Source: Candidatus Companilactobacillus pullicola
GTDB lineage: Bacteria; Bacillota; Bacilli; Lactobacillales; Lactobacillaceae
DNA length: 64,000 nucleotides
Reading direction: 5' to 3'
Assembly: GCA_019116025.1 (NCBI GenBank)
Contig: DXCM01000042.1
Span: 1-64,000 of the forward strand
The notes under the pieces are model-generated. The model saw only the letters and a list, made by a program, of their open reading frames with translations. It had not been told where the DNA came from and did no database searches. Position 1 is the stretch's first letter, and the number at the start of each line of letters is the position of its first letter. A program made the position numbers and the translations under genes. This document shows positions 6,335 to 46,365 of the stretch, in pieces.

Positions 6335-6506
6335 GTCGGCAGTAGAAAATCTGTGGGCCACTGGAACGTGGTGGACACGGCTTGAAGCTAATAATTTTAC
6401 ACTTCGTGTAAAATCATGGATCTCCAAGTCCGGTCTTCTGGTAACCTTGCTTCGCAAGCTAACCAGAATTTCACCACTGAGGGCCCACAGATTTTCTACT
6501 GCCGAC
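6335..6506 (+). repeat. Family-1 structured repeat, copy 1a
   Basis: Closed by a perfect 25-bp inverted repeat (6335-6359 with 6482-6506). Inside are the family signature GGAACG, a GTGGTG/CACCAC helix, the strand TTGAAGCTAAT, a TTTTACAC-TTC-GTGTAAAA hairpin, TGGATCTCCA, and a TCTGGT/ACCAGA hairpin. Sequence similar to copies 3a and 4a also extends about 30 bp upstream (GATATCAACTGATGT). It begins 41 bp after the pentapeptide gene and is paired in inverted orientation with 6711-6870. Confidence 0.85.
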
Positions 6507-6710
6507 TGTATTTCAGTTTCTAATATTATTGGTTAAAATTACGATATTTGAATAGTTATTTATGCTATGTAATGAAATAAGGATAGTGAGTTTTGGTTTA
6601 ATAAAAAAGAACAGTGTTTTTTAGTGAGCGTAAAGTATGCGGAAATCTAGTAATAATGCTATTTTACGATCCGATATTTTAAGAGTATACAAATAATAGA
6701 ACAACAAACT

Positions 6711-6870
6711 AGTCCGGAACAACAAGCTCGATTGGTCTCAGCCGTGAGATTATACTTAGCGATTTATCGCTTAGTATAAGACCTGTATTTGAGACAATTG
6801 TGAACTTCAATTGGCTCAAATCAGTGTCCACAGCGTTCCAGACCAATCGAGCTTGTTGTGGAGGACGGCA
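6711..6870 (-). repeat. Family-1 structured repeat, copy 1b (inverted partner)
   Basis: The closing helix is an 18-bp perfect inverted repeat (6720-6737 with 6841-6858). Read on the minus strand it shows GGAACG, a GCTGTG/CACGGC helix, a GATTTGAG/CTCAAAT helix around a CAATTG/CAATTG hairpin, and a long TTATACTAAGCGA hairpin, in the same order as the other copies. It has the outer ends AGTCCGGA and GGAGGACGGCA. It is almost identical to copy 2b. Confidence 0.85.
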
Positions 6871-7050
6871 TACAGAACCCCAAAAAAATATTTTTCTCTC
6901 AAAAAGGCAGTAAATTTACCCACTACAACGCTATATATCTAATATAGGAATATTTTTTTGAGCAAACGTAATCGTCTGAACCGTCAATCATTGCCATTCA
7001 TGTAACGACGATTTGTGAACGTGCTCAAGTGATGATTTTACTGAATTTGA

Positions 7051-7123
7051 AATAAGACTACCAGATATGGTATTGATGTGTTATATATCACAACATCTAG
7101 TATTTGGTAGTCTTATTTTTTTT
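7051..7123 (+). terminator. Terminator-like hairpin upstream of nrdD
   Basis: AATAAGACTACCA (7051-7063) pairs with TGGTAGTCTTATT (7105-7117), followed by a T-rich run. It is probably the displaced terminator of the pentapeptide gene, or an attenuator for nrdD. Its loop contains the palindrome-like TGTGTTATATATCACA (7077-7092), which resembles a CRP/FNR-family site. Confidence 0.65.
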
Positions 7124-7174
7124 ATTATAATTTTGTAAAATGATACCAGTATTTAATTAATTAGGGGGAAGATT

Positions 7175-9385
7175 ATGACTACTGAATTGCAAAAATTAGT
7201 TTCGATTCCTGTAGAAAAAAGAAGTGGGGCAGTGACTAGTTTTTATCCCTATAAAATAGAATTTGTTTTGGACAAATTACAATTGAATGATCACCAAAAA
7301 GAATTAGTGACTTCAAAATTAGTTGCTGAAGTGGCTAGTTTAGAACGTCTGACAACTACTCAACTCCATGGTCTTATTTTTCGTGTCTTGAATGATAATG
7401 ATATGGAGGAACAGGCTGAAGCTTACGAACGTTACTTCCAAGAAGATCAAGATAAGTTTTCACGTGCAACCAATGTACAACTAAATATTGAACGTTTGTT
7501 TAATCGTAATGAGGATGTTGTGCACGAAAATGCTAATAAAGATAGTAATATTTTCAATACCCAACGTGATCTAGAAGCTGGAGTTGCCAGTCGTGCGATG
7601 GGTTTAAAAATGTTGCCTGAGTTAGTTGCTAAAGCTCATTTACGTGGTGATATTCATTGGCATGATTTAGATTATTCACCAGTCACACCAGAGACTAACT
7701 GCTGTTTAATCGATTTTGATGAAATGTTGAGTAACGGTTTTAAGATTGGAAACGCCTGGGTTTCTTCACCACGTTCTATCCAAACTGCTACAGCACAGAT
7801 GTCACAAATTATCGCTAACGTTGCTTCATTACAATATGGTGGTTGTTCCGCTAATCGTATCGACCAACTTTTGGCACCTTATGCGGAAATCAATTATCAA
7901 AAACATCTTAAAGATGCACGTAAATGGATTGCTGAAGATAAGCAAGTTGAGTTTGCTAAGGAAAAGACTCGCAAGGACATTTACGATGCCATGCAGGCCT
8001 TGGAATATGAAATCAATACACTTTACTCTTCTCAAGGACAAACGCCGTTTACGACGATTAATTTCGGTTTAGGAACAACTTGGATCGAGCGTGCTATTCA
8101 AAAATCAATTTTAGAAATTAGAATTAAAGGTTTAGGTAAGGAACACCGAACAGCTATTTTTCCTAAGTTAACTTTTACCATTAAACGTGGCTTGAATTTG
8201 AATCCTGGCGATCCTAATTACGATATCAAAATGTTGGCTTTGGAATGCTCTACAAAGCGGATGTATCCTGACTTATTAATGTACGACAAGATCAAAGAAC
8301 TTACAGGTAGTTTCAAAACTCCAATGGGTTGCCGTTCTTTCTTACAAGGTTGGAAAGATGAAAATGGTAAAGAAGTTAATTCTGGCAGAATGAACCTCGG
8401 CGTTGTAACGGTCAATTTACCAAGAATTGCCTTGGAATCTCAAGGAAATACTGACCTATTTTGGGAAATCTTTGAAGAAAAGATGCAAATTTGTCACACC
8501 GCTTTGGCTTATCGAATTGAACGTACTAAGCAAGCTAAACCAGAGAATGCACCATTGTTGTACATGTATGGAGCTTTCGGCAAACACTTGAAGAAGGATG
8601 ACAGCATTGATGAGTTGTTTAAGAACGAACGTGCAACGGTATCACTAGGTTATATCGGCTTGTACGAAGTCTGCACTGCCTTCTTTGGCGACAAGTGGGA
8701 AAACAACCAGACCGCTCATGACTTTGCAGAAAAAATTGTTAAAGCGTTACACGATAAATGTGCGCAATGGGCTAAAGAAAGTGGCTACCACTATAGTTTG
8801 TACTCCACACCAGCTGAATCGCTGACGGATACATTTTGTCGCGACGATTTGGAAAAATTTGGTTCCATTCCTAATATCACAGAAAAAGAATACTACACTA
8901 ATAGTTTCCATTACGATGTTCGTAAGCATCCTAATCCATTTGAGAAGTTAACTTTTGAAGAAGTCTTTCCTAAGTACGCTTCTGGTGGATTCATTCATTA
9001 CTGTGAATATCCTAATTTACGCCAAAACCCTAAAGCACTCGAAGCAGTGTGGGATTGGGCTTATGATCACGTTGGATATTTGGGAACGAATACTTCCATT
9101 GATCAATGTTTCAAGTGTGGGTTCAAAGGTGAATTCAATGCGACGGCACGTGGATTCGTATGTCCAGAATGTGGCAACCACGACCCTCAATTTTGTGATG
9201 TGGTTAAGAGAACTTGTGGTTACTTAGGTAATCCTCAACAACGCCCAATGATTCATGGACGTCACGTCGAAATAGCTTCACGTAGAAAAAATATGACTTC
9301 GGAGATGATAAAACATGCGGCAGAACATGAGAGAGCCAAACAATCCGACTCCCAAAGAATGGTTAAGCAAGGACCACAGTCTTAA
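7175..9385 (+). CDS. nrdD: Anaerobic ribonucleoside-triphosphate reductase
   Basis: 736 residues, class III reductase that makes dNTPs without oxygen using a glycyl radical. An N-terminal ATP-cone runs from about residue 15 to 110 (SGAVTSFYPYKIEFVLDKL). The catalytic barrel has NCCLIDF and NLGVVTVNLPRIAL. Four cysteines in CFKCG and CPECG near residues 650-668 form the zinc site. RTCGYLG near residue 685 carries the radical glycine. GGGGGAAG lies before the ATG. It overlaps nrdG by about 70 nt, so the two are co-translated. A TATAAT at 7126-7131 is a likely -10. No NrdR box pair was recognised. Confidence 0.95.
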   Translation: MTTELQKLVSIPVEKRSGAVTSFYPYKIEFVLDKLQLNDHQKELVTSKLVAEVASLERLTTTQLHGLIFRVLNDNDMEEQAEAYERYFQEDQDKFSRATNVQLNIERLFNRNEDVVHENANKDSNIFNTQRDLEAGVASRAMGLKMLPELVAKAHLRGDIHWHDLDYSPVTPETNCCLIDFDEMLSNGFKIGNAWVSSPRSIQTATAQMSQIIANVASLQYGGCSANRIDQLLAPYAEINYQKHLKDARKWIAEDKQVEFAKEKTRKDIYDAMQALEYEINTLYSSQGQTPFTTINFGLGTTWIERAIQKSILEIRIKGLGKEHRTAIFPKLTFTIKRGLNLNPGDPNYDIKMLALECSTKRMYPDLLMYDKIKELTGSFKTPMGCRSFLQGWKDENGKEVNSGRMNLGVVTVNLPRIALESQGNTDLFWEIFEEKMQICHTALAYRIERTKQAKPENAPLLYMYGAFGKHLKKDDSIDELFKNERATVSLGYIGLYEVCTAFFGDKWENNQTAHDFAEKIVKALHDKCAQWAKESGYHYSLYSTPAESLTDTFCRDDLEKFGSIPNITEKEYYTNSFHYDVRKHPNPFEKLTFEEVFPKYASGGFIHYCEYPNLRQNPKALEAVWDWAYDHVGYLGTNTSIDQCFKCGFKGEFNATARGFVCPECGNHDPQFCDVVKRTCGYLGNPQQRPMIHGRHVEIASRRKNMTSEMIKHAAEHERAKQSDSQRMVKQGPQS

Positions 9386-9896
9386 GAGAATCGCTGACTA
9401 TAAACCATTTAATTTTGTTGACGGTGAAGGAGTTAGGTGCAGTTTGTACGTCTCAGGCTGCTTGTTCAGATGTCCGGGCTGTTATAACGTAGCGGCTCAG
9501 GATTTTCGATATGGAAAACCCTACACGAAAGAATTAGAAGATAAGATCATCAAAGATTTGGGACAAAGTTATGTCCAAGGACTGACCTTATTAGGTGGGG
9601 AACCATTTTTAAATACGGAAGTCTGTATATCGTTGTGTAAAAGAATTCGAAAAGAATACGGTCATACGAAAGATATTTGGTCATGGACCGGCTATTCTTG
9701 GGATGAAATGATGAAAGAGTCAGACGACAAGTTAGAATTACTATCATTGATCGATATCTTAGTTGATGGAAGATTTCTATTAAGAAAGAAAGATCTAACC
9801 TTACAATTCCGAGGCTCTTCAAATCAAAGAATCATAGATGTACCTAAGTCACTAGATAGTGGTGAAGTTGTTATTTGGGATAAGTTAGTTAAATAA
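9315..9896 (+). CDS. nrdG: Anaerobic ribonucleotide reductase activating protein (radical SAM)
   Basis: 193 residues. It installs the glycyl radical on NrdD using S-adenosylmethionine and a 4Fe-4S cluster. The cluster motif CLFRCPGC (CX3CX2C) is near residue 47, preceded by NFVDGEGVRCSLYVSGC. The SAM-binding TLLGGEPF follows near 94. The start at 9315 has GGAG 10 nt upstream; ATG 9327 is an alternative. The gene begins inside the end of nrdD in another frame. Only 4 nt after its stop codon a family-1 structured repeat begins, and the nearest terminator is 630 bp away. Confidence 0.93.
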   Translation: MRQNMREPNNPTPKEWLSKDHSLKRIADYKPFNFVDGEGVRCSLYVSGCLFRCPGCYNVAAQDFRYGKPYTKELEDKIIKDLGQSYVQGLTLLGGEPFLNTEVCISLCKRIRKEYGHTKDIWSWTGYSWDEMMKESDDKLELLSLIDILVDGRFLLRKKDLTLQFRGSSNQRIIDVPKSLDSGEVVIWDKLVK

Positions 9897-9900
9897 ATTC

Positions 9901-10075
9901 CCGACCTCCACAAAAACGGGGAATGCATTGGAACGCTGTGGGCGCGATTTGAAGCTAATTATTTTACACTTCGTGCAAAATAATGGATCTCCAAAGTCGG
10001 CCTCATTGTAAATGGCAAAGCCATTAACAATGATTTCACGGCTGAATGCATTCCCCGTTTTTGCTCCGGTCTAAA
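9901..10075 (+). repeat. Family-1 structured repeat, copy 2a
   Basis: The closing helix is CGGGGAATGCATT with AATGCATTCCCCG. Internal elements are GGAACG, GCTGTG/CACGGC, CGATTTG/CAAAGTCG, the strand TTGAAGCTAAT, a TATTTTACAC-TTC hairpin, TGGATCTCCA and a TCATTGT/ACAATGA hairpin with ATGGC/GCCAT. The ends are CGACCTCCAC and GCTCCGGTCT. It starts immediately after the nrdG stop codon. Confidence 0.85.
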
Positions 10076-10310
10076 TAGTACTTTGGTTATTTGATGGAAG
10101 AAAACTTATTTAATCAGTTAATTTCTTTTCGAAAGATATTTTCAAGCTTGATATTATTAGTTAAATTTGCAGTGTTTTAAAGTTTTTTTGTTTTATATAA
10201 GTAGGGGATTTTTATTTAGATGAAGACGAATATAGTAATATCTGAATCTCTTAAATAAGTATTATTTACTATCCAATATTCTAAGAGAATAAAGAATAGA
10301 ACAAGGTATT

Positions 10311-10470
10311 AGTCCGGAGCAACAAGTCCGATTGGTCTCAGCCGTGAAATTGTACTTAGCGATTTATCGCTTAGTACAAGACCTGTATTTGAGACAATTG
10401 TGAACTTCAATTGGCTCAAATCAGTGTCCACAGCGTTCCAGACCAATCGGGCTTGTTGTGGAGGACGGCA
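10311..10470 (-). repeat. Family-1 structured repeat, copy 2b (inverted partner)
   Basis: Nearly identical to copy 1b over its full length. The closing stem differs by one compensated pair: TCCGATTGG with CCAATCGGG here, TCGATTGG with CCAATCGAG in 1b. The ends are AGTCCGGA and GGAGGACGGCA. The 235-bp spacer to copy 2a is AT-rich and shares short blocks, such as TTGCAGTGTTT, with the spacer after copy 5a. Confidence 0.85.
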
Positions 10471-10524
10471 GTTTACCACTATAAAATATAAAACTACGGT
10501 TGTTTAAAATAGAATACCAACCCA

Positions 10525-10565
10525 AGAATCGCGACAAAATCAAAACATTGTCGCGGTTCTTTTTA
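10525..10565 (+). terminator. Intrinsic terminator downstream of repeat pair 2
   Basis: AGAATCGCGACAA pairs with TTGTCGCGGTTCT and is followed by TTTTT. No gene lies between it and nrdG except the repeat pair, so it is probably the nrdDG terminator displaced by the insertion. Confidence 0.75.
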
Positions 10566-10574
10566 ATATTAAAG

Positions 10575-10626
10575 TTGACAAACGTAAACTCGGAGAATAA
10601 TATAATAAGTGAAGTTTACAAGTGTA
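10575..10626 (+). promoter_or_regulatory. Copper operon promoter with two cop boxes
   Basis: TTGACA (10575-10580) and TAATAT (10598-10603) are 17 bp apart. A cop box matching KACANNYGTA (GACAAACGTA, 10577-10586) overlaps the -35, and a perfect TACAAGTGTA (10617-10626) lies near the start of transcription. This is the operator of CopY/CopR repressors, which release DNA when copper is bound. No copY gene is present in this operon, so the repressor must be encoded elsewhere. Confidence 0.8.
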
Positions 10627-10659
10627 AACAAAAAGATGAGGGATTGAGGAGAGATAGTT

Positions 10660-11031
10660 ATGACAAAGGTGATCGTACTAATCGTTGGTTTAGCAATTAT
10701 AGGTTTTATTCTTTGGTGGTTCTTCGGCAATCATCAAGTAGCCCAAGAAACAGCTGATGTGAAAGATAACAGTCAAAGTATTGATGTTGAAGTTAACGGT
10801 GGATACTCACCTGAAGTCGTTACTTTGAAAAAAGGTGTTCCCGCCACAATCAATTTTACGAGAAAAGATGCTTCTAGCTGTTTAGACCGAGTGGTCTTCT
10901 CAGACTTTGGTATCAATCAAGAATTGCCACAAAATGAAAAACAAACAGTAGAAATCGATACTAGCAAGTCTGGCGAATTCAGTTGGGCTTGTGGTATGGA
11001 TATGTTCCATGGAAAAGTAATTATTAAATAA
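10660..11031 (+). CDS. Membrane-anchored cupredoxin-like protein
   Basis: 123 residues: one N-terminal membrane helix (about residues 3-24, VIVLIVGLAIIGFILWWFF), then an extracytosolic cupredoxin-like beta-sandwich with VEVNGGYSPEVVTLKKGVP. It lacks the classical His-Cys-His-Met type 1 copper set. Instead it has a cysteine in SSCLDRV and a C-terminal WACGMDMFHG motif, suitable for Cu(I) thiol/methionine binding. GAGGAGAG precedes the start. It is the first gene of the copper operon, 15 nt from a paralogue, and probably buffers or hands over copper outside the membrane. The fold is inferred from the family. Confidence 0.8.
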   Translation: MTKVIVLIVGLAIIGFILWWFFGNHQVAQETADVKDNSQSIDVEVNGGYSPEVVTLKKGVPATINFTRKDASSCLDRVVFSDFGINQELPQNEKQTVEIDTSKSGEFSWACGMDMFHGKVIIK

Positions 11032-11046
11032 AGAGGAGAAATTATT

Positions 11047-11319
11047 ATGGCTGAAAAAATTCAAAAGGTTAACGTTACAGTTGCAGGAGGATATGATCCA
11101 GCAGTTGTTACCTTGAAAAAAGATATTCCCGCAGAGATAACTTTTACTAGAACTAATGCTCAAGGATGTTTGGACGTGGTTCACTCTAAAACTATGAATT
11201 TTGAAAAAGAATTACCATTAAATACTGCTCAAACCGTTTCCGTTGCGACTGATAAAGCAGGTGAATTTGAATTCAGTTGCGGTATGGACATGTTTTCTGG
11301 GAAGGTAGTGATTCAATAA
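11047..11319 (+). CDS. Cytoplasmic cupredoxin-like copper-binding protein
   Basis: 90 residues, a paralogue of the preceding protein without membrane helix or signal peptide. Shared features are VTVAGGYDPAVVTLKKDIP, a cysteine in QGCLDVV and the terminal FSCGMDMFSG. Its position before an ATPase that lacks an N-terminal metal-binding domain suggests that it acts as a separate copper chaperone in the cytosol (inference). GAGGAG lies before the ATG, and its TAA overlaps the ATPase ATG by one base, so translation is coupled. Confidence 0.8.
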   Translation: MAEKIQKVNVTVAGGYDPAVVTLKKDIPAEITFTRTNAQGCLDVVHSKTMNFEKELPLNTAQTVSVATDKAGEFEFSCGMDMFSGKVVIQ

Positions 11320-13244: not shown

Positions 13245-13254
13245 TGTTTACAAC

Positions 13255-13293: not shown

Positions 13294-13307
13294 GATTGAT
13301 CATTAAC

Positions 13308-15656: not shown

Positions 15657-15830
15657 AGCGTCAACTTCTCCTAGAAATTGTGAATATAATACTATCTTAA
15701 ACCTTTTTGGGTATGGAAAAGCAAATATTATTGTTTTAGGGATCCTAAATGTAGATTAAATATCTAAGATTCCTAATTTAATTACGTTCGATATCAACTA
15801 AGAGATGCGCTAAGTATGCCCGTCGTCGTC

Positions 15831-16000
15831 GTCCGTAGAAAATCTGTGGGCCACTGGAACGTTGCGGACACGGCTTGAAGCTAATAATTTTTCACTCTGT
15901 GAAAAATTATGGATCTCCAAGTCCGGTCTTCTACTAACCTTGCTTCGCAAGCTAAGTAGAATTTCGCGACTGAGGGCCCACAGATTTTCTACGGATGGAC
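15831..16000 (+). repeat. Family-1 structured repeat, copy 3a
   Basis: The closing helix is GTCCGTAGAAAATCTGTGGGCC paired with its complement at the end of the unit (two extra bases on one arm). Against copy 1a the inner helix changes from GTGGTG/CACCAC to GTTGCG/CGCGAC, and the distal hairpin from TCTGGT/ACCAGA to TCTACT/AGTAGA, while unpaired strands (GGAACG, TTGAAGCTAAT, TGGATCTCCA) stay the same. It lies upstream of both gtrA and the LLM gene. Confidence 0.85.
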
Positions 16001-16238
16001 TATATTTCTGTATCTAGTATTATTGGTCAACGTTGCTGTATTTAGATATTTATTTCTAAAAATAACAAAAGTGAAGATCATAAATTTCTTATAGAAAGAT
16101 TTTCCAAATGATATTCTGAGCTTTCGTATTCAATTAACTTGGATTTAAACTTTCTTTTTTGAAATGAACGTATTTTTTCAAAGCAGGAGATAGTGTCTTA
16201 AATAGTTTTATTCAGAACAAAAAATTGAAATACTATTT

Positions 16239-16411
16239 AGTCCGGAGTAAAACTTGGAAATACGTTCAGCCGTGAAATCATTGTTAATGGCTATGCCATT
16301 TACAATGAGGCCGACTTTGGAAATCCATTATTTTGCACGAAGTGTAAAATGATTAGTTCCAAATCGTGCCCACGGCGTTCCAACGTATTTCCAAGTTTTG
16401 CGGAGGACGGG
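16239..16411 (-). repeat. Family-1 structured repeat, copy 3b (inverted partner)
   Basis: Closing helix AAACTTGGAAATACGTT with AACGTATTTCCAAGTTT. On the minus strand it shows GGAACG, GCCGTG/CACGGC, TTGGAACTAAT, a TTTTACAC-TTC hairpin, TGGATTTCCA and the TCATTGT/ACAATGA hairpin. The ends are AGTCCGGA and GGAGGACGG. Its interior resembles copy 2a in opposite orientation, showing that the plus and minus copies belong to one family. Confidence 0.85.
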
Positions 16412-33825: not shown

Positions 33826-33940
33826 GTCGGTAGTAGAAAATCTGTGGGCCACTGGAACGTGGTGGACACGGCTTGAAGCTAATAATTTTCCACTTCGTGA
33901 AAAATCATGGATCTCCAAGTCCGGTCTTCTACTAACCTTG
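33826..33940 (+). repeat. Family-1 structured repeat, copy 4a (truncated)
   Basis: Almost identical to copy 1a from its upstream flank (ATCAACTGATGT) through GGAACG, TTGAAGCTAAT and CCGGTCTTCTACTAACCTTG, then breaks off. The distal hairpin arm and the closing 3' arm are missing, and an intrinsic terminator begins within 10 bp. The closing helix therefore cannot form here. Confidence 0.85.
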
Positions 33941-33947
33941 TTTAAAG

Positions 33948-34024
33948 AAAAAACGGCATTTATTAAGAGTGAGAGATTCAGATATATTTTATATATCTGC
34001 TCGTTTAATAGATGCCGTTTTTTT
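33948..34024 (+). terminator. Intrinsic terminator replacing the end of repeat 4a
   Basis: AAAAAACGGCAT...TATTAA pairs with TTAATAGATGCCGTTTTTTT. An inner CAGATATA/TATATCTG hairpin sits at the top. It is the first terminator after rlmH. Confidence 0.8.
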
Positions 34025-34117
34025 GCTGTCTGAAATTCTAATTAAAGACAATATTCAAAATAGAAAGGATATCGAATTAAATAATTTATCTCAAATTAAA
34101 TAATAGAAGTGTTGTTT

Positions 34118-34291
34118 AGTCTGGAACAAAAATTGGGAATGCGTTCAGCTATGAAATTATTGTTATCGGCTTTGCCGATTACAATAAGGCCGACTTTTGA
34201 AATCCATTATTTTGCACGAAGTGAAAAATAATTAGTTCAAAATCGCACCCATAGCGTTCCAACAGCATTCCCAATTTTTGTGGAGGACGGG
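34118..34291 (-). repeat. Family-1 structured repeat, copy 4b (inverted partner)
   Basis: Closing helix AAAAATTGGGAATGC with GCATTCCCAATTTTT. On the minus strand: GGAACG, GCTATG/CATAGC, TTGAACTAAT, a hairpin around CACTTCGTG, TGGATTTCA and a hairpin with ATCGGC/GCCGAT. The ends are AGTCTGGA and GGAGGACGG. It is a close relative of copy 5a in reverse orientation and lies upstream of the SLAP-like gene. Confidence 0.85.
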
Positions 34292-34430
34292 AATCAAGCA
34301 CTATCCTTCCTCTCTTTATTAAGAATTTGTTTTATTTTTGAATAATATATTGTTAATAAAATATTTTCTCTTAGAATTAAAGTTGAATAAATAGAAACTT
34401 AGGTAATTTCCTTTGGGGATGTAAAAAACA

Positions 34431-36032
34431 ATGAAAAATAGTAAAAAGATTTTAGCAGCTTCTGCTGTAGCAATTATGTTGGCACCAGCCGCAATTTCTG
34501 CCATTCCACAACAAACAATTCAAGCTAGTGGTTTGGTTGGATTAGTAGGAACAATTAGACGTGATGGTGGACAAATTGTTGACGATAACGGAAATATCAC
34601 TAAATCAACTTTGCCTAACTTTAGTTCATGGAAACTAGGTCAAACAAAACAATTACGCGGTAAAACTTATTATCAAGTTGGTAATAACGAATGGGTCGCT
34701 TTTGACTCAATGGATATCGCTGTAAATGGTAATAAATTAAATAGTTACGCAACTAATTACAACGCTGACGTCCGTAATGTTGCCACAGTTGCCGGTAATA
34801 CAAAGATTGTTAATAGTAATGGTCAAAGCACTGGTCGAGTTTTGCCAAAGGGTAGTCAATGGCAACTAGGTGATATTGCTACTATCAATGGCACTGCCTA
34901 TTATGAAGTTGGCACTGATCAATGGATTGCTGCTAGTTCTGTAACTAATATGGTTTCTAGTGATACTAGTAATCAAGCCGCTGGTAAGCAAACTCAAACA
35001 AATACAACGACTACAACTACTAATACAGCAGCTAAGAAAATTGGAACTTTGAATTCAACGGCTTCAATTTATGGTTCTGATGGAAAACCAATGGGTATGA
35101 CTTTACCTCAAGGCAGTCAATGGCAATTAGGTGCTTTAATTACGGTTGGTAGTAAAAAGATGTATCAAGTTGCAACTAATGAATATATTGACGCTTCCTT
35201 AGTTAATGTTGCTGGACAAACACAAACGCCAACAACTTCTACTGACGATAATAGTTCGGCTGGAAAAGTTGGTACAACAACTTCTAGAGTTAATATTGTT
35301 ACTGCAGATGGAGTAGAAACAAGTATGACTTTAGGTCAAGGTACACAATGGAAGCTCGGCAAGACTATTAAGATCAACGGTGTTTCTTATTATGAAGTTG
35401 GAACAAATGAATATGTCGCCGCTACTAGCTTTACGTTTAACGGTGGCAATACTACAACTACAACTTCAAAGCCAAGTAATACTCAAGTCACAATAACAGC
35501 TAATCCCGATGCAGGTGAAGTTGGTACAGCAACAACTGATCTAGGTATCGTTAATGATGCTGGAACAAGTACTGGTTCTTCACTTCCAAAAGGTAGTCAA
35601 TGGAAATTGGGCCGTATTATGAATGCTAACGGTATGGTTTATTATGAAGTTGGTAATAATGTATGGATTCCTGCCAGTGATATAACAATCACTAGATCAA
35701 ACGGTTCAACAAGTACTTCAACGACAACAAACACAACTACGAATACAACAACAACTAATCCTGGAATCCCAACTCCAGGTAATGGTTTGATTGGTACTAC
35801 AACAGTCGCTCAAAAGACTTATGATCCATCAACTAATTCCTATGGACAAATCTTGCCAGTTAACTCATCATGGAAAATTTCTAAGTTAGTTGTAAATAAA
35901 TATGGCTCATACTGGGGTCAAATTTCATCCAACGAATGGGTTTGGATCAGTACAGTTAGATTGAACAGTGGTCTTAATTTGAAGACATATGCTGTCAGTG
36001 AACCTGAATTTGCTGTAAAAATTAATAAGTGA
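34431..36032 (+). CDS. Secreted cell-surface protein with six SLAP-like repeats
   Basis: 533 residues. A signal peptide (about 1-32, KKILAASAVAIMLAPAAISA, cleavage near QASG) is followed by six repeats of about 55-70 residues with a common core such as LPKGSQWQLGDIATINGTAY and YEVGTDQWIAASSV. Repeats are separated by Thr/Ser/Asn-rich linkers. This matches SLAP (SlpA C-terminal type) domains, which bind the cell wall non-covalently. No enzymatic domain is present, so the role is structural or adhesive. GGGG lies before the ATG. A terminator follows. Confidence 0.8.
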   Translation: MKNSKKILAASAVAIMLAPAAISAIPQQTIQASGLVGLVGTIRRDGGQIVDDNGNITKSTLPNFSSWKLGQTKQLRGKTYYQVGNNEWVAFDSMDIAVNGNKLNSYATNYNADVRNVATVAGNTKIVNSNGQSTGRVLPKGSQWQLGDIATINGTAYYEVGTDQWIAASSVTNMVSSDTSNQAAGKQTQTNTTTTTTNTAAKKIGTLNSTASIYGSDGKPMGMTLPQGSQWQLGALITVGSKKMYQVATNEYIDASLVNVAGQTQTPTTSTDDNSSAGKVGTTTSRVNIVTADGVETSMTLGQGTQWKLGKTIKINGVSYYEVGTNEYVAATSFTFNGGNTTTTTSKPSNTQVTITANPDAGEVGTATTDLGIVNDAGTSTGSSLPKGSQWKLGRIMNANGMVYYEVGNNVWIPASDITITRSNGSTSTSTTTNTTTNTTTTNPGIPTPGNGLIGTTTVAQKTYDPSTNSYGQILPVNSSWKISKLVVNKYGSYWGQISSNEWVWISTVRLNSGLNLKTYAVSEPEFAVKINK

Positions 36033-38314: not shown

Positions 38315-38321
38315 TTTAAAG

Positions 38322-38601: not shown

Positions 38602-38626
38602 AAAAATTCTGAGGGAGCAAATTATT

Positions 38627-40030: not shown

Positions 40031-40057
40031 CTTTTATTAAAAGGAGAAATTTTCAAT

Positions 40058-40987
40058 ATGGTGAAACGATTAATCAGTGCAGATACTAGCGACATGCTAG
40101 CAATGGACGGAGCTGAACTAAAGCAAAGTATCAAAGCTAGTGAAGGCCGAGTAGTTCTGAGCGAAAACGTTGTTGGACATGAACCAATGGACGGTATCAC
40201 AACTTCAGAAATTGCAGCTGCATTTGGAGCTGACTTGATTCTACTCAACGGTTTAGATGTTTTAAATCCTATTATTTTAGGACTTTATCCTGGTGAGGAA
40301 ACTTTGGCAACAGCTAAAGCTCATCATGATGGTGAAAGTATTCACCATCTTCAAAAATTAGTAGGACGCCCAATTGGTGTTAACTTGGAACCAGTTGATC
40401 CTAACGCTAAGATGGCCGAAGATCGTTTGATCATTCCTGAAGGCCGTATGGCAAGTGAAAAAACTTTGCAAGAAGTAGAAAAATTAGGTTTCAACTTTGT
40501 TGTCTTGACTGGTAATCCAGGAACTGGTGTTACTAACGCTCAAATTGCTGCCAACATCAAAGTTGCTAAGAAGAACTTCCACGGACTAGTTATTGCAGGT
40601 AAGATGCACGGTGCTGGTGTTGATGAACCAGTAGTCAGTGAAGAATCTGTAACAGCCTTTCTAGAAGCCGGAGCTGATGTGATTTTAGTTCCCGCAGTAG
40701 GAACTGTTCCAGGATTTGACGATGACGAACTCAAAGCCGTTGTTAAATTAGCTCATGACAAAGGTGCACTAGTTATGAGTACAATTGGAACAAGTCAAGA
40801 AGGTTCAGGTAGCAGCTACATCGAAAACGTAGCAATCAGAAATAAAGTCGATGGCGTTGATATCCAACACGTCGGAGATGCTGCTTGGGGAATTCAATCA
40901 CCATTTGAAAATATCTTTGCAATGAGCAGAGCTATTCGTGGTGAACGTCATGCAATCGTACGTATGGCTCGTTCAATCAATCGTTAG
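40058..40987 (+). CDS. TIM-barrel-like protein of unknown function, PTS-linked
   Basis: 309 residues. It has a beta/alpha pattern with barrel-like strands LILLNGLDVLN, GVNLEPVD, FNFVVLTGNPGTGVTN, GLVIAGKMHGAG, ADVILVPAVGTVPG and ALVMSTIGTSQEGSG. It has no HAD motif and no signal peptide. I know similar proteins next to PTS IIC genes in lactic acid bacteria but not a proven activity; a sugar-phosphate lyase or hydrolase role is only inference. GGAG lies before the ATG, and the gene is probably co-transcribed with the IIC gene. Confidence 0.65.
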   Translation: MVKRLISADTSDMLAMDGAELKQSIKASEGRVVLSENVVGHEPMDGITTSEIAAAFGADLILLNGLDVLNPIILGLYPGEETLATAKAHHDGESIHHLQKLVGRPIGVNLEPVDPNAKMAEDRLIIPEGRMASEKTLQEVEKLGFNFVVLTGNPGTGVTNAQIAANIKVAKKNFHGLVIAGKMHGAGVDEPVVSEESVTAFLEAGADVILVPAVGTVPGFDDDELKAVVKLAHDKGALVMSTIGTSQEGSGSSYIENVAIRNKVDGVDIQHVGDAAWGIQSPFENIFAMSRAIRGERHAIVRMARSINR

Positions 40988-40996
40988 AAACTAACT

Positions 40997-41044
40997 CAAA
41001 TAGGGATGTTATTAGGTTTTGATACCTAGTAACATCCCTATTTT
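40997..41044 (+). terminator. Intrinsic terminator
   Basis: AAATAGGGATGTTA with an inner TTAGGT/ACCTAG extension pairs with TAACATCCCTATTTT. Confidence 0.85.
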
Positions 41045-41125
41045 GATCAATATTATAATTGCCCATGAAAGGGATTATAATATTGATATGAATAAAAAAT
41101 ATTGGTTGGTCTGGAGATGGTAAGT

Positions 41126-41401
41126 ATGACAATAAAAGATTTCTCTTCAAAGATAAGTGTTAGTAAAAAGTTTGGATATGATTATTTAGTAGAGCTAAAA
41201 GATGTAAATAAGCTGAATGATTTGTATAACACATTAAAGAATATTGGAACTTATGTGATTCCTTATGGAACAAAAGGTTACAGACTTACATCAAAAAAAT
41301 CTAAGGACTTTATTACTCAATATATTTATGAAAATACCAATTTGGAAAAAAAGGATTATACAGTATTGTCGACACTTGAATTCAATTCACTTAGAATGTG
41401 A
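41126..41401 (+). CDS. Uncharacterised small protein
   Basis: 91 residues, not recognised. It is basic and soluble, with alternating helices and strands (YDYLVELKDVNKLNDLYNTLKN, TYVIPYGTKGYRLTSKKSK). GGAGATGG lies before ATG 41126. It stands between two terminators or promoters and appears to be transcribed alone. Confidence 0.6.
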   Translation: MTIKDFSSKISVSKKFGYDYLVELKDVNKLNDLYNTLKNIGTYVIPYGTKGYRLTSKKSKDFITQYIYENTNLEKKDYTVLSTLEFNSLRM

Positions 41402-41574
41402 ATTTAAACTTTATTAATCAGGGATGCAATTAGATTTTAACGTCTATTTGCATCTTATTTTTTCGCATTTTTACCTATTTTAAATGAAAAATATAAAAAA
41501 ATTTCAGAAAACACTTACGAAGAAAATTTTTTTCTGGTATATTAATCCACTGTTGCAACAATTTGGAGGTAATT

Positions 41575-43038
41575 ATGAGTCAGTCTCAAAAAATTAATAC
41601 AAGACCCGAACATCCAATCTTGTCACTATTGGGTGTCTTAATCGGTGGATTTGTAGGAATGTTTAGTGAAACTTCATTAAATATTGCCCTTCCATCAATC
41701 ATGAAAGCTTTTAATATCGAAACAGGAACTGCACAGTGGCTAGTTACAGGTTATATGCTTGTAATTGCGATTGTTTTACCACTTTCAAGTTTATTAACAA
41801 AACATTTTTCAACACGTGGATTAGTTAGATTTGGTTTGTTAGACTTTATCGTCGGTTCAGCAATCTCTGCATTAGCAATGAACTTCCCAATGCTTTTGGC
41901 AGGTAGAATGATTCAAGGTATCGCTACCGGAATTATTTTGCCACTTATGTTCTCAATTGCTATGAGAATTTTTCCACCTGATAAATTAGGTGCCGCTTTA
42001 GGTATGGCTGCCTTAGTTATCATGTTTGCCCCAGCTATTGGACCTACAATTTCAGGTATCATCTTGGGCGCATTGTCATGGAGATATATTTTCTGGTCAT
42101 TCATCATCTTCCTATTGATCGGTTTGTTCATTATGGAAAAGAATTTGACTAACGTTTTTGAAGTAACTAAGCCAAAAGTTGATTGGTTAGCTATTGCTTT
42201 ATCAACTATAAGTTTTGGTTTGATCGTCTTTGGTATCAGCTTCTTGAGCAAAAACATCGCCACAGCCTTGATTGCTTTAGTTGTAGGTATCATTTTCTTG
42301 ATTGTCTATATCAGACAACAGTTACATGCTAAAACTCCAACCTTGGATTTCTCAGTTTTGAAGACTCCAGAATTCTTAACAGGTTCCGTTCTAGTTATGT
42401 TGAACTTTGGTATTACATTGTCAGCTATGTATTTGTTGCCAATGTACTTACAAAATGGTTTAGGCGTTGCTGTAGCTTTAACTGGTGTCGTAATGTTGCC
42501 AGGTGGTGTTATCAATGCCGTTGTTTCATTTGGTGCAGGTCGTGCCTACGATAAAATTGGTGCTAAGATGATGTCTCGTTTAGGCTTCCTAATTTCTATC
42601 GTCGGTTCAGCGATGTTCCTATTCAGTAATTCAAATAGTTCCTTAGGTTATATTATCGTAGCCCATATCATTTTAATGATCGGTGTGCCATTAGCTATGT
42701 CACCATCACAAACATATGGACTTAATTCATTGGATGCATATCAATCCGCAGATGGTTCTGCCATCATCAATACTTTCCAACAAGTTATTGGTGCCGTAGC
42801 AACTGGTATTGCCACAATTCTGTTGAGTACAGGTCAAGCTAACTACTTCGCTAATGGCGGACATTCAGCTAAATTAGCTTTCACAAATGGTGCTCATTAT
42901 GGATTCATGTTTACATTGATTTTAGCTGTCTTCGGATTTATCTTGGCATTCCGTGTTCACAATAAGAGCAAAGAAACTGTCACAGTTGAAGAGACAGAAG
43001 AAGCAACTTCTAAAGACAAAGAAGCTGTCACTGAGTAA
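41575..43038 (+). CDS. DHA2-family MFS multidrug exporter
   Basis: 487 residues with about fourteen membrane helices, as in EmrB/QacA drug:H+ antiporters. Motif A-like RMIQGIATGIILPLMFSIAMRIFPPDKLGAALGMAA and motif C-like MFAPAIGPTISGIIL are present. TTGGAGG lies before the ATG at 41575. The C-terminal 25 residues are acidic and cytoplasmic. No regulator is adjacent. Confidence 0.9.
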   Translation: MSQSQKINTRPEHPILSLLGVLIGGFVGMFSETSLNIALPSIMKAFNIETGTAQWLVTGYMLVIAIVLPLSSLLTKHFSTRGLVRFGLLDFIVGSAISALAMNFPMLLAGRMIQGIATGIILPLMFSIAMRIFPPDKLGAALGMAALVIMFAPAIGPTISGIILGALSWRYIFWSFIIFLLIGLFIMEKNLTNVFEVTKPKVDWLAIALSTISFGLIVFGISFLSKNIATALIALVVGIIFLIVYIRQQLHAKTPTLDFSVLKTPEFLTGSVLVMLNFGITLSAMYLLPMYLQNGLGVAVALTGVVMLPGGVINAVVSFGAGRAYDKIGAKMMSRLGFLISIVGSAMFLFSNSNSSLGYIIVAHIILMIGVPLAMSPSQTYGLNSLDAYQSADGSAIINTFQQVIGAVATGIATILLSTGQANYFANGGHSAKLAFTNGAHYGFMFTLILAVFGFILAFRVHNKSKETVTVEETEEATSKDKEAVTE

Positions 43039-43067
43039 TTAATAAAATAGAAAACAATTGATACTTG

Positions 43068-43108
43068 TTTAATCTCGGCTATGCGCTTGCTTAGTCGAGA
43101 TTTTCTAT
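43068..43108 (+). terminator. Intrinsic terminator
   Basis: AATCTCGGCTA pairs with TAGTCGAGATT and is followed by a T-rich stretch, 35 nt after the MFS gene. Confidence 0.75.
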
Positions 43109-43169
43109 TTCAATCTAAATTTGTGAAATATTTCTGATGATTTTACTTGAAATTGAACGCAAAAAATGG

Positions 43170-43198
43170 TTGAAATATCTCAATAATTCCTTTACAAT
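43170..43198 (+). promoter_or_regulatory. Promoter of the 44-aa gene
   Basis: TTGAAA (43170-43175) and TACAAT (43193-43198) with a 17-bp spacer, 50 bp before the small ORF. Confidence 0.6.
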
Positions 43199-43247
43199 AA
43201 TAGGGTTAATAAATAAGTTAAATTGTAACGGGAAGGAGGGTTTTTAG

Positions 43248-43382
43248 ATGTCACAAAATACACATAAAGGTATGACTGGCCACCGCCGTCCTGTAAACCA
43301 AAAAAATGGTGCAGAAAAACGTGCCCATACACAAGCTGTTCTTGACTTCCTAAGAGGTCGCGACGCAAAAGAATCTAAATAA
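43248..43382 (+). CDS. Small basic protein (44 aa)
   Basis: 44 codons starting MSQNTHKGMTGHRRPVNQ and ending LDFLRGRDAKESK. It is preceded by GGGAAGGAGGG, a promoter, and followed 8 nt later by a strong terminator, so it is a complete single-gene unit. The N-terminal half is polar, basic and probably disordered, and the C-terminal half (AHTQAVLDFLRGR) is likely one helix. I do not recognise it. Nucleic-acid or ribosome binding would fit the charge, but this is inference. Confidence 0.75.
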   Translation: MSQNTHKGMTGHRRPVNQKNGAEKRAHTQAVLDFLRGRDAKESK

Positions 43383-43389
43383 TTAGATT

Positions 43390-43430
43390 AAAAAGAGCTA
43401 ACAGACAATCGTCTGTTAGCTCTTTTTTTA
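43390..43430. terminator. Bidirectional intrinsic terminator
   Basis: AAAAAGAGCTAACAGAC and GTCTGTTAGCTCTTTTTTT form a near-perfect hairpin ending the small gene and the convergent diguanylate cyclase gene. Confidence 0.9.
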
Positions 43431-44558
43431 TATAATAGTAATTTCTTTACGACCATTACGTTTGGAATGATATAAAGCTTTGTCGACTCTAGAATAAAAG
43501 TCATTAACGGAAACATCTTTTTTACTGATTTCAGAAACTCCAACTGAGATAGTAATGTGAATTCTTTCTTGGCCGACGTCGACTTCTGTGTGATTAACAG
43601 CTTCGAAAATTTTCTTAACGATAACCTGAGTATCTTGAACTTGATAGTGGGGGAAGATGATATTGAATTCTTCACCACCGGTACGATATAACTTAATGTT
43701 CTCATCATTATCAGCGAGGACATTTTGAACGACATCAACAATTGTTTGTAAAACTTTGTCGCCTGCTAAATGGCCATAGGTATCGTTGATATGTTTGAAA
43801 TGATCAATATCAAACATCATCATAGTAAATTTTCCATCCGAAAGAATATTATCTTTAAAGAGTGAACGAAAATCGACATCGAAGGCATCGTAGTTATAAG
43901 CGTGTGTCAGTTTATCGTGAGTGGCGTCCCGAAAGAGTGCAGCTCTGGATTCCACATCCGTATAAAGGATTGCGATATAGCCAAAAGTAAACAGTTCGAT
44001 GATACCGAGATAAATGACTTGTTGAAAGAATGTCGGAGTATTGATTGCATATTTAATTTTGATGAAGAACCAGTAAAGAAAGCCGGAAATAAAGCTGACG
44101 GTAAAATATAGGAAAAAGGGAAATTTGCTTTTGGTGTTATTTTTGATGTAATTCAGTGAATAGTAGAATATTAATAAAACAATTCCTGAACACCATGATT
44201 CCCAACTCGTGAAGGATGAATTGAAGAACATAAACGCGATGACGATTGGCGTAAAAAGATGATACTTAGATGGAACGCTCAAAATAATAGTGTAAAAAAT
44301 AATGGAAACTAATTGAAAATTGATATAGATCCAAGATTGACCTCTACCACGGATGGTAATTTGCATGATGAGTAACAGAACCAAGATATAAATGATTCCT
44401 AAAATTGAGCGTAATACGTATTTATCAATACTTTTTTTCAAAACTTTAAAGATTAACCTAACTCCAGCAAAAAGTATTTGGAATACAACGAAGGCTCTCA
44501 TAATGAAAAAGAGGCTAGTGGTTAATGGTGCACTATTTAGAAAAATATTAGTTAACAA
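43428..44558 (-). CDS. Membrane diguanylate cyclase (GGDEF domain)
   Basis: About 376 residues. Seven or eight membrane helices fill the first 200 residues, and a GGDEF domain follows: THDKLTHAYNYDAFDVDF, MMMFDIDHFKHINDTYGHLAGDKVL and the intact active site RTGGEEF. It should make cyclic di-GMP from GTP. AGGAGGAG lies about 10 nt before TTG 44558, which I prefer as start; an ATG at 44600 would place the ribosome binding site inside the coding frame. No EAL, PilZ or other c-di-GMP gene lies in the window. Confidence 0.82.
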   Translation of the reverse strand: MLTNIFLNSAPLTTSLFFIMRAFVVFQILFAGVRLIFKVLKKSIDKYVLRSILGIIYILVLLLIMQITIRGRGQSWIYINFQLVSIIFYTIILSVPSKYHLFTPIVIAFMFFNSSFTSWESWCSGIVLLIFYYSLNYIKNNTKSKFPFFLYFTVSFISGFLYWFFIKIKYAINTPTFFQQVIYLGIIELFTFGYIAILYTDVESRAALFRDATHDKLTHAYNYDAFDVDFRSLFKDNILSDGKFTMMMFDIDHFKHINDTYGHLAGDKVLQTIVDVVQNVLADNDENIKLYRTGGEEFNIIFPHYQVQDTQVIVKKIFEAVNHTEVDVGQERIHITISVGVSEISKKDVSVNDFYSRVDKALYHSKRNGRKEITII

Positions 44559-44670
44559 ATTTATGTCTCCTCCTGGAACCTTTCTATTAGTAGCTGTCAT
44601 AGAATAATTATAATCATTTATTATCAATAAATTAATAGACAGATTTAGTAAATTATTGGAAATTCTTACG

Positions 44671-44726
44671 AAAAATAATAGCACCTATTCAGAGTCCTAA
44701 GGGATTTTGGATAGGTGCCGTTTTAA
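44671..44726. terminator. Intrinsic terminator
   Basis: AATAGCACCTATTC pairs with GGATAGGTGCC and is followed by GTTTT. It ends the minus-strand MFS gene. Confidence 0.7.
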
Positions 44727-44741
44727 ATTGTATATCGGTAA

Positions 44742-46112
44742 TTAGTCGAAGTCAGGACGATGTAATTTGTGTGTCATGATCAAGGCGACGATTAAAAATC
44801 CTAAACAGGCTAGGAAACCAGCTTGAATACCAGTGGCTTGGTTAACAGTACTACCGTTCATGATCTTATCAGCCATAGTGATGACGGCAATGATGATTGC
44901 AGTTCCAAAGGATGCAGCTATTTGTCTTAAAGTATTAAAGGTTGCTACACCGTCAGAAATATATTTTTTAGGTAGCGAACTTAAAGCGTGAGTTTGAATT
45001 GGAATTAAAATCAGAACTAATCCTAATTGACGAATCGTTTGTCCGACCGTCAACATTAGAACAGAAGCATTAACGTCAATAACGGCTTGCATAAAGGTAC
45101 CAAAGCAGTCGATTAAAACCCCAGTGACGACGATTCGTTTAATAGGATATTTATCAAACAATTTTCCACTGACAGGTGACATAAAGCCGGTCAAAGTTGC
45201 TCCGGGTAGTAATGCTAAACCTGATATTAAGGGGCTTTTATGCAGGATAGTCTGAATCATAAGCGGTAAAAGAATAGTATTACCATACATAGTTAAGACG
45301 ATTAACATATTGATAACAGTCGCAAAGGTAAATTGTGAATGCTTAAAAATTTCGAAATTAATAATCGGCTTACTAGATTTATTTTCCATGACGGAAAAGA
45401 TAACAATCAAAATTAAACCAATAACGGTATATCCGAGGACGTTGAAGGTGAAGAGATTTGATTGGCCGATGTTGGAGAAACCTGTTAATAGGAAGAGAAG
45501 TCCAAAACTGATTGTGATTAGACTAACGGTGTCAAATTTTGGATTCTCGGTTGTCTCAATTTGTGGTAAGAGAAAAATTGATAGGAGCACAACGGCTATA
45601 ATGAATGGCAGGATCAAGATGAACAGGTATTGCCAAGCAAAGTACTCTAAAATGACTCCAGACAGGGTTGGTCCAATGATAGGGGAGAAATTAAAGGCTA
45701 AGCCAATAATCCCCATAACCGCCCCTTGTTTGCTTCTATCGGTATATTGCATGGCTAGTACGTTGACCAAAGGCATCATCATACCAGTACCGATAGCTTG
45801 AATCATTCGTCCAACGATAACGAGGATAAATGAGTTAGCCACGGCACCTAGTAGAGTTCCGACTAAAAAAATAGAAGAAAAGGCAATGAATAAATGTCTA
45901 AAAGAAAATTTCTTTATAAAATAGGCACTAGTTGGAATCATGATGGCATTGACTAAGGTATAGCCATTGGTCAACCATTGAACGGTGGAAGAGTTAACGT
46001 TGAAAACTCTCATAAAGGTTGGGAGAGCGGTATTCATCAAGGTTGAACACAAGACACCGAAGAAGGTTCCAAAGACCATGATGTAGAGAGATTTTTTGAT
46101 TTGTTTTGACAT
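44742..46112 (-). CDS. DHA2-family MFS multidrug exporter
   Basis: 456 residues, about fourteen membrane helices. Typical segments are MNTALPTFMRVFNVNSSTVQWLTNGYTLVNAIMIP at the N-terminus, GRMIQAIGTGMMMPLVNVLAMQY (motif A region) and NFSPIIGPTLSGVIL (motif C). It is a second drug:H+ antiporter-like pump, related to but distinct from the one at 41575. AGGGGC lies before the ATG. Its upstream region carries a solo family-1 repeat. Confidence 0.9.
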   Translation of the reverse strand: MSKQIKKSLYIMVFGTFFGVLCSTLMNTALPTFMRVFNVNSSTVQWLTNGYTLVNAIMIPTSAYFIKKFSFRHLFIAFSSIFLVGTLLGAVANSFILVIVGRMIQAIGTGMMMPLVNVLAMQYTDRSKQGAVMGIIGLAFNFSPIIGPTLSGVILEYFAWQYLFILILPFIIAVVLLSIFLLPQIETTENPKFDTVSLITISFGLLFLLTGFSNIGQSNLFTFNVLGYTVIGLILIVIFSVMENKSSKPIINFEIFKHSQFTFATVINMLIVLTMYGNTILLPLMIQTILHKSPLISGLALLPGATLTGFMSPVSGKLFDKYPIKRIVVTGVLIDCFGTFMQAVIDVNASVLMLTVGQTIRQLGLVLILIPIQTHALSSLPKKYISDGVATFNTLRQIAASFGTAIIIAVITMADKIMNGSTVNQATGIQAGFLACLGFLIVALIMTHKLHRPDFD

Positions 46113-46192
46113 AATTTGAGCCCCTAAAAGAAAAGTAGTAACTTATCCATTTTAGTTATCAAATTTGTTAAGGTCAAATTGAAGATGGATGT

Positions 46193-46365
46193 CGTCCTCC
46201 ACAAAAATTGGGAATGCTGTTGGAACGCTATGGGCACGATTTGAAACTAATTATTTTACACTTCGTGCAAAATAATTGATTTCCAAAGTCGGCCTCATTG
46301 TAACCGGCAAAGCCGGTAACAATGATTTCATAGCTGAACGCATTCCCAATTTTTGCTCCGGACTG
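46193..46365 (+). repeat. Family-1 structured repeat, copy 5a (solo)
   Basis: Closing helix AAAAATTGGGAATGC with GCATTCCCAATTTTT, then GGAACG, GCTATG/CATAGC, TTGAAACTAAT, a TTTTACAC-TTC hairpin, TGATTTCCA and a TCATTGT/ACAATGA hairpin extended by CCGGC/GCCGG. The ends are CGTCCTCCAC and GCTCCGGACT. It resembles the reverse complement of 4b. The AT-rich DNA after it resembles the spacer of pair 2 (TTGCAGTGTTT), but no intact inverted partner remains before 46540. Confidence 0.85.

What the first reader, a model, noticed from the sequence alone, without database searches (positions are those of the whole stretch)
6335..46365. A dispersed family of covarying, multibranched structured repeats (nine copies)
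Copies at 6335, 6711, 9901, 10311, 15831, 16239, 33826 (truncated), 34118 and 46193 share one layout: a long closing helix, GGAACG, a 6-bp helix, an inner helix leading into TTGAAGCTAAT, a hairpin, TGGATCTCCA, a second hairpin, then the return strands. Helix sequences change while pairing is kept: GTGGTG/CACCAC, GTTGCG/CGCGAC, GCTGTG/CACGGC, GCCGTG/CACGGC, GCTATG/CATAGC in one helix; TCTGGT/ACCAGA against TCTACT/AGTAGA, and ATGGC/GCCAT against CCGGC/GCCGG in another. Unpaired strands stay nearly constant. Compensatory change of this kind implies selection on an RNA (or folded single-stranded DNA) structure, not just sequence duplication. I know of no described RNA family with this consensus, but could not search.
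Basis: partly seen in the sequence, partly recalled or inferred. Interest (0 to 1): 0.88.

Follow-up and report, generated by a model that had tools for sequence, protein, structure and literature searches.

The report
Folded-end mobile repeats in lactobacilli
The repeats are the two ends of small, gene-free jumping DNA elements spread through many lactobacilli; each end can fold into the same branched hairpin, whose arms stay matched in a way that looks like selection or copying at the DNA level rather than a functional RNA.

Summary
Nine copies of a ~165-190 nt unit share one three-way-junction fold, with strong covariation: 36 of 48 pairs change on both sides. Units occur in 81 of 301 Lactobacillaceae genomes, 13 of 40 genera, and were found in none of 397 others drawn from class Bacilli. 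In two Lactiplantibacillus species the whole pair is a mobile element: TIR ACGCTTGGTGCTAGTTG, abutting 7-9 bp target duplications in 27 of 42 copies against 4 of 1722 mispaired controls, one site empty in the sister species, and a 99%-identical copy elsewhere. It is a MITE-type non-autonomous transposon with folded ends. The covariation is not RNA-like: mostly Watson-Crick, G.U not clearly commoner than A.C. That favours a DNA hairpin or template switching between arms. No Rfam family reaches its threshold. The mobilising transposase was not found. Two divergent ISLre2-family insertion sequences carry one unit at their right end; the other ISLre2 loci examined do not.

The parts
6330..6511 (+). 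unit, subfamily A, left end of composite 1
   Evidence: blast/CM hit
6709..6872 (-). unit, subfamily C, right end of composite 1
6330..6872 (.). composite 1 (convergent pair plus AT-rich spacer); outer TIR boundaries not fixed in this genome
9901..10074 (+). unit, subfamily B, left end of composite 2
10309..10472 (-). unit, subfamily C, right end of composite 2
15827..15992 (+). unit, subfamily A, left end of composite 3
16237..16411 (-). unit, subfamily B, right end of composite 3
33826..33943 (+). truncated unit, subfamily A, left end of composite 4; 3' part replaced by another hairpin with a T-run (by eye)
34116..34294 (-). unit, subfamily B, right end of composite 4
46195..46366 (+). unit, subfamily B; left end of composite 5, right unit reduced to a remnant near 46419-46436 (by eye)

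Best explanation
A family of non-autonomous DNA transposons (MITE type), found here only in Lactobacillaceae. One mobile element is mostly ~300-700 bp: terminal inverted repeat, an inward-facing folded unit (~165-190 nt here, three-way junction), a non-coding spacer, a second diverged inward-facing unit, terminal inverted repeat. SHOWN: the convergent-pair anatomy across genera; in two Lactiplantibacillus species, precise ends, 7-9 bp target duplications, one empty site and a near-identical whole-element copy; in the window's genome, units conserved while the spacer drifts. INFERRED: the units are cis-acting ends needed for mobilisation by a DDE-type transposase supplied in trans, and they act (or are kept matched) as folded DNA rather than RNA; strict Watson-Crick co-change is partly produced by template switching between hairpin arms, on top of selection that keeps the shared loops (GGAACG and others).
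For: Pair anatomy: of adjacent units less than 700 nt apart in fetched relatives, 50 of 56 are convergent, 0 divergent, 6 tandem (one overlapping false call dropped, 150 of 165 matches used). Duplications: 27 of 42 vs 4 of 1722 control pairings. Mobility: a 396-bp element in G310 flanked by ATTCTAGT on both sides; syntenic G309 aligns on both sides without it, with a few small gaps at the junction; the whole element including spacer is 99% identical to a copy at G309:C27. TIR 79+81 matches in G309 and 75+85 in G310 against 0 and 1 for the reversed pattern. Units under constraint: in 21 A/B composites of this genome mean pairwise identity is 0.90 and 0.87 in the units, 0.60 in the spacer (gap fraction 0.57), 0.53 and 0.47 outside. 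DNA-like pairing; P6 arms fully Watson-Crick in 39 of 40 A copies and 60 of 60 B copies caught by my patterns.
Against: No autonomous partner found: no transposase among the 14 largest clusters of neighbouring ORFs printed (judged by eye), none between paired units 380-3000 nt apart (by eye). In the window's genome shared flank words are no more frequent than in mispaired controls (8 of 41, 19.5%, vs 18.2%), so target duplications are shown only in two Lactiplantibacillus species. 15 of the 42 elements lack a recognisable duplication, and at least two pairs among the 42 look like the same insertion in both species. Outside the few dominating pairs G.U is slightly commoner than A.C in A2 and A3. 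The tRNA control for the G.U test was small and badly registered and is not relied on. GGAACG varies (109 of 130, 38 of 42, 132 of 150 units). That folding is needed for transposition is inference.
Confidence: 0.72

Rival explanations
1. A functional structured RNA (sRNA or cis-regulator) dispersed by a mobile element, with selection on the RNA.
For: Strong covariation, shared unpaired residues such as GGAACG, stable folding; in the convergent pairs read-through transcription from either side makes a sense unit first.
Against: G.U not clearly favoured over A.C; few pairs with G.U at 5% or more; the five window composites lie in same-strand (four) and divergent (one) gene gaps, with no evident relation to one gene side; no Rfam family at threshold.
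Confidence: 0.15
2. The arms stay matched only because of template switching between inverted arms during replication; the folded shape itself has no function.
For: Within subfamilies (109 of 131 distinct units) double Watson-Crick changes 171 versus one-sided 94; in P6, 90 versus 2. Template switching is reported to make multibase compensatory changes and to keep stems paired (PMC8794818, abstract and start of the introduction seen).
Against: Much the same non-complementary loop (GGAACG against TGA) is kept across genera (A3 and A4), which arm copying alone would tend to erase; units are far more conserved than the spacer of the same elements.
Confidence: 0.3
3. Elements are derived from and mobilised by ISLre2-family (Mutator-related, UPF0236) insertion sequences.
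For: A unit sits inside the right end of an ISLre2-like IS on a Levilactobacillus brevis plasmid and, inward-facing in the same place, in a second IS with no blastn match to it (L330, L331). Mutator-related prokaryotic elements make 8 or 9 bp repeats (PMC3942029, passages); an ISLre2 member of Geobacillus made 9 bp (PMC8024623, passages).
Against: Only L330 and L331 of 30 PF06782 loci have a unit at E<=1, and these two are 99.98% identical over 4.1 kb, i.e. one case; in at least eight of 15 other loci an end-like TTGACAC motif follows within ~110 nt of the gene, by eye; the window's genome has no PF06782 hit at E<=1e-5, and PF06782 is in 24 of 301 genomes against 81 of 301 for units, 9 shared where 6.5 are expected by chance (my count); TIRs differ by eye; no promoter-like bias at MITE flanks, unlike ISLre2 (PMC3942029).
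Confidence: 0.15
4. REP/BIME-like elements moved by a Y1 (RAYT-type) transposase acting on folded single strands.
For: Inverted pairs of hairpin units at >100 copies resemble BIMEs (PMC2817692, start of abstract seen in the listing).
Against: Target duplications of 7-9 bp; one Y1 hit, with an internal stop, in the whole genome.
Confidence: 0.05

Closest known systems
Prokaryotic MITEs (e.g. QMITE2 of Coxiella burnetii, in the review PMC10969869, passages seen)
   Same: Short, non-coding, TIRs, 7-9 bp direct repeats, intergenic; predicted transcripts fold
   Different: Here each end carries a three-way-junction unit whose fold is kept with covariation across genera; the review's main text has no word beginning 'Lacti'
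Pneumococcal BOX/RUP (listing of PMC3049150) and Bacillus cereus bcr repeats (recalled)
   Same: Interspersed structured repeats in Gram-positive bacteria
   Different: Not compared here; differences in sequence and architecture are recalled
ISLre2 / Mutator-related prokaryotic transposons (PMC3942029, passages)
   Same: 8 or 9 bp repeats; two ISLre2 elements contain one unit
   Different: No unit detected in 28 of 30 PF06782 loci; no transposase found in composites; different TIR
REP/BIME with RAYT
   Same: Inverted pairs of foldable repeats
   Different: Much larger branched units; target duplications; no intact Y1 transposase hit in the genome

Membership tests
MITE (non-autonomous DNA transposon) | Terminal inverted repeats with precise ends | tested here: met
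   ACGCTTGGTGCTAGTTG at both ends in G309/G310; ends not fixed in the window's genome
MITE (non-autonomous DNA transposon) | Target-site duplication | tested here: met
   27 of 42 vs 4 of 1722, two Lactiplantibacillus species; not demonstrable in the own genome
MITE (non-autonomous DNA transposon) | Moves as a unit: empty site and near-identical copy | tested here: met
   (one site)
MITE (non-autonomous DNA transposon) | No transposase of its own | tested here: met
   for 17 longer pairs, by eye; shorter spacers leave no room for one
MITE (non-autonomous DNA transposon) | Autonomous partner with matching TIR | tested here: inconclusive
   none found; no exhaustive search
ISLre2-derived element | Shared TIR and presence of the UPF0236 transposase | tested here: not met
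Structured RNA family (Rfam) | Match at gathering score | tested here: not met
   below threshold only, e.g. MIR5638 35.1 bits (gathering 500) over the L306 element
Structured RNA family (Rfam) | Covariation with G.U tolerance | tested here: inconclusive
   searches show no clear G.U preference, but the RNA control failed
Structured RNA family (Rfam) | Transcribed, processed RNA | not testable with these tools
   no RNA-seq
REP/BIME | RAYT (Y1) transposase and no target duplication | tested here: not met

The most novel reading that the evidence does not exclude
A transposition system whose DDE-type machinery recognises element ends as folded DNA: a branched, three-way-junction hairpin read by shape (with favoured loop bases) rather than by duplex sequence, and carried as a portable end module by MITEs and by some ISLre2 insertion sequences.
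Probability: 0.22. Interest if true: 0.87.

Novelty: new variant of a known kind. Interest (0 to 1): 0.64.

Why it matters
It is a case in which textbook covariation, normally taken as proof of a functional RNA, arises in mobile DNA with few G.U intermediates; discovery pipelines would call it an RNA. It offers more than a hundred natural replicates in one genome for measuring how hairpin arms are kept matched, and points to an unidentified transposase that may use folded DNA ends. The repeats flank moved genes (nrdDG here) and several contig ends lie in them.

Tried and rejected
Y1 transposase partner: one hit with a stop. Recurrent neighbour genes: no transposase in the 14 largest clusters printed. 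Genes between paired units: ordinary genes or no long ORF, judged by eye. Phages (one composite as blastn query) and viral contigs: nothing convincing; the exact pattern has 20 fixed bases and matches only 15 of 130 own-genome units and 13 of 42 of relatives, so absence there is weak evidence; the one TIR hit (L320) has no unit at E<=1. Plasmids: few hits with window or Levilactobacillus queries, none with Lactiplantibacillus elements. Own-genome target duplications: not above control as a group; a few loci look right (L012, L017, L042, L060, L105) but are not counted. ISLre2 as driver: not supported. tRNA control for G.U: 22 distinct tRNAs; of 180 cells 147 Watson-Crick, 6 G.U, 1 A.C, 26 other, so poorly registered; dropped. 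First P6 tally had too narrow a pattern and was replaced. Rfam at permissive thresholds: MEG8_3 14 bits in the window; MIR5638 35.1 bits, E 2.5e-6 but gathering 500, over the whole L306 element; mir-15, mir-559 and a PyrG leader outside units; taken as hairpin chance matches.

Limits: CM counts are bounded by the tools (150 scored in the own genome, 8-10 candidates per genome with stricter filters in the wide searches). R1 was built from this genome, so remote units may be missed; alignments A3, A4 and A6 are fitted to its structure. The end position used was set after looking; its control uses the same position. Literature: eight searches listed no paper that I recognised as describing this family; PMC2267715 was seen in passages only; subscription journals are mostly outside the library.
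Full report
WHAT IS THERE. The window lies in a 2.93 Mb, 99-contig genome. Its genus is Companilactobacillus by inference: two 'same genus' genomes (G213, G245) have contigs whose lengths equal those of named Companilactobacillus musae (707,204) and C. futsaii (91,821) contigs. They fall into subfamilies A, B and C; the eight that were folded (not truncated 33826) take the same layout: long closing helix P2 (with an outer GTCC/GGAC in B and C), asymmetric loop (left GGAAC, right TGA), P3 of 6 bp, a three-way junction, P4 with single-base bulges topped by hairpin P5, hairpin P6 with a TAA/TAA internal loop, and a short linker back to P3.

COVARIATION IS REAL. On 47 units of this genome (chosen from 102 full-length ones; 15 were passed over, nearly all for lacking GGAACG), 95.0% of 2172 pair cells are standard pairs and 36 of 48 pairs change on both sides; the covariation score is 0.509 against 0.155 in shuffles (0 of 500) and at most 0.085 in slid registers; the number of further pair types is not above shuffles (303 of 500). 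On 43 matches from 29 loci of relatives: 97.0%, 44 of 48, score 0.593, further types reached by 8 of 500. On 150 matches from named genomes: 94.3%, 46 of 48, score 0.524, 0 of 500 on all measures. The last two alignments were fitted to the structure, which leans towards it. The loop motif GGAACG is frequent but not constant: 109 of 130, 38 of 42 and 132 of 150 units.

UNITS COME IN CONVERGENT PAIRS. In the window the pairs are 6335/6711, 9901/10311, 15831/16239 and 33826/34118, with 46193 keeping only a remnant partner. Among adjacent units less than 700 nt apart in fetched relatives, 50 of 56 are convergent, 4 and 2 tandem on either strand, 0 divergent. No transposase is evident in the longer spacers (by eye).

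DISTRIBUTION. At least 150 units in this genome (all 150 that the tool scored matched, the weakest at E 1.2e-21). 81 of 301 Lactobacillaceae genomes including this one, 13 of 40 genera; 0 of 397 other genomes drawn evenly from class Bacilli, at least two of them Lactobacillaceae, with strict filters and 8 candidates scored per genome. Titles of records with an exact match to a 20-fixed-base pattern include Lapidilactobacillus, Lacticaseibacillus, Lactiplantibacillus, Levilactobacillus, Companilactobacillus, Schleiferilactobacillus, Limosilactobacillus, Pediococcus and Secundilactobacillus (the model was run on 80 of these 114 loci). No hit to one composite in phage records; few on plasmids; the viral-contig scan found none but its pattern catches only a minority of units.

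THE PAIR IS A MOBILE ELEMENT. In Lactiplantibacillus songbeiensis and L. dongliensis (G309, G310, reached through L153 and L155) the pair is bounded by TACGCTTGGTGCTAGTTG, with 160 matches (up to 2 mismatches) per genome against 0 and 1 for the reversed pattern. Taking the end at ACGC, 27 of 42 elements have 7-9 bp direct repeats abutting both ends (one mismatch allowed at 8-9 bp), against 4 of 1722 pairings of left and right flanks from different elements; at least two pairs of the 42 look like one insertion seen in both species. One 396-bp element in G310 lies between two copies of ATTCTAGT; the syntenic G309 contig aligns on both sides, with small gaps at the junction, and lacks it; and the whole element, spacer included, is 99% identical to a copy at G309:C27:17177-17575. 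So the mobile thing is the pair, and it moved recently. In the window's own genome target duplications cannot be shown as a group (8 of 41 against 18.2% in controls), which old insertions would explain.

WHAT THE UNITS DO. In 21 composites of this genome with A left and B right, mean pairwise identity is 0.90 and 0.87 in the two units, 0.60 in the spacer (gap fraction 0.57), 0.53 and 0.47 in the outer flanks. Spacers are still homologous: whole composites match others of the genome at 74-83%. Since spacer and units of one insertion share the same age, I infer that the units were constrained in the active lineages: they behave as transposon ends. In the pairs and in the two insertion sequences below they face inward. 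That they are bound by the transposase, and in folded form, is inference.

DNA RATHER THAN RNA. If an RNA fold were selected, G.U should be tolerated and A.C purged. Cells: 29 vs 45 (A2), 27 vs 16 (A3), 63 vs 148 (A4); without the few dominating pairs 14 vs 8, 18 vs 15, 45 vs 77. In A4, 29 of 40 pairs carry two or more Watson-Crick types at 5% or more, only 3 carry G.U and 6 A.C at that level, and transition-linked to transversion-linked combinations are 34:64; in A2 the figures are 32 of 48, 2, 3 and 24:32. Within subfamilies cut at 12% divergence (109 of 131 distinct units used) there are 171 double Watson-Crick changes and 94 one-sided ones (22 G.U, 53 A.C, 19 other; 27 of the A.C lie in P5); in P6 it is 90 against 2 in 1242 cells, while unpaired sites change at 7.7%. 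P6 lower arms are fully matched in 39 of 40 A and 60 of 60 B copies found by pattern, including single-copy variants that are matched. A mutational route exists: template switching between inverted arms can make multibase compensatory changes (PMC8794818, abstract and start of introduction). It does not easily explain why much the same unmatched loop persists, so I keep both: arm copying plus selection on the fold. The RNA control I tried was too poor to use, so this contrast rests on what is generally known of RNA helices.

THE ISLre2 LEAD. On a Levilactobacillus brevis plasmid a unit lies about 28 nt behind an ISLre2-like transposase gene (PF06782), facing inward, inside a segment shared with a L. 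plantarum plasmid. A second ISLre2-type element with no blastn match to it (L330; L331 is the same sequence) has a weaker unit (33 bits) in the same place. Against a general link: L330/L331 are the only ones of 30 PF06782 loci with a unit; of 15 other loci whose gene tail I read, 13 have neither GGAAC[GA] nor [CT]GTTCC within 330 nt (one of them cut off after 28 nt), and the motifs in the other two are not units by the model. The window's genome has no PF06782 hit, and the two features overlap in 9 genomes where 24 and 81 of 301 carry them, against 6.5 by chance (overlap counted by me). The TIRs differ by eye, and 110 MITE flanks show no excess of promoter-like sites (22 and 20 against 27 and 26 in shuffles), unlike ISLre2 (PMC3942029, passages).

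VERDICT. A new group of MITE-type elements with covarying, folded end modules, spread over many genera of one bacterial family: a new variant of a known kind. The mobiliser and the role of the fold are open.

Noticed in passing
window 6330-10472: Two composites flank nrdD/nrdG (7175-9896; Pfam NRDD and a 4Fe-4S/radical-SAM protein). In relative G302 the regions on either side are adjacent and nrdDG lies about 1.6 Mb away on the contig, so the block was moved or the repeats recombined.
   Followed up: partly
own genome, e.g. C28:1-144, C65:1-145, C56 and C4 ends: Several contigs end inside units, so the repeats seem to break the assembly.
   Followed up: no
window 33944-34030: The 3' part of unit 33826 is replaced by a long hairpin ending in a T-run, terminator-like by eye.
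   Followed up: no
L330 and L331: A 4,140-base stretch with an ISLre2 element is 99.98% identical in genomes placed in two genera (g20, g33): recent transfer or a contaminated assembly.
   Followed up: no
window 34431-36032: Predicted surface-layer (SlpA-domain) protein with internal repeated segments 230-490 bases apart.
   Followed up: no
L302-L305, L193: Shortened elements (159-271 bp) with the same TIR but apparently one recognisable unit; three of these five (L193, L304, and L305 counted as L276) have abutting duplications, suggesting internal deletion derivatives that still moved.
   Followed up: partly
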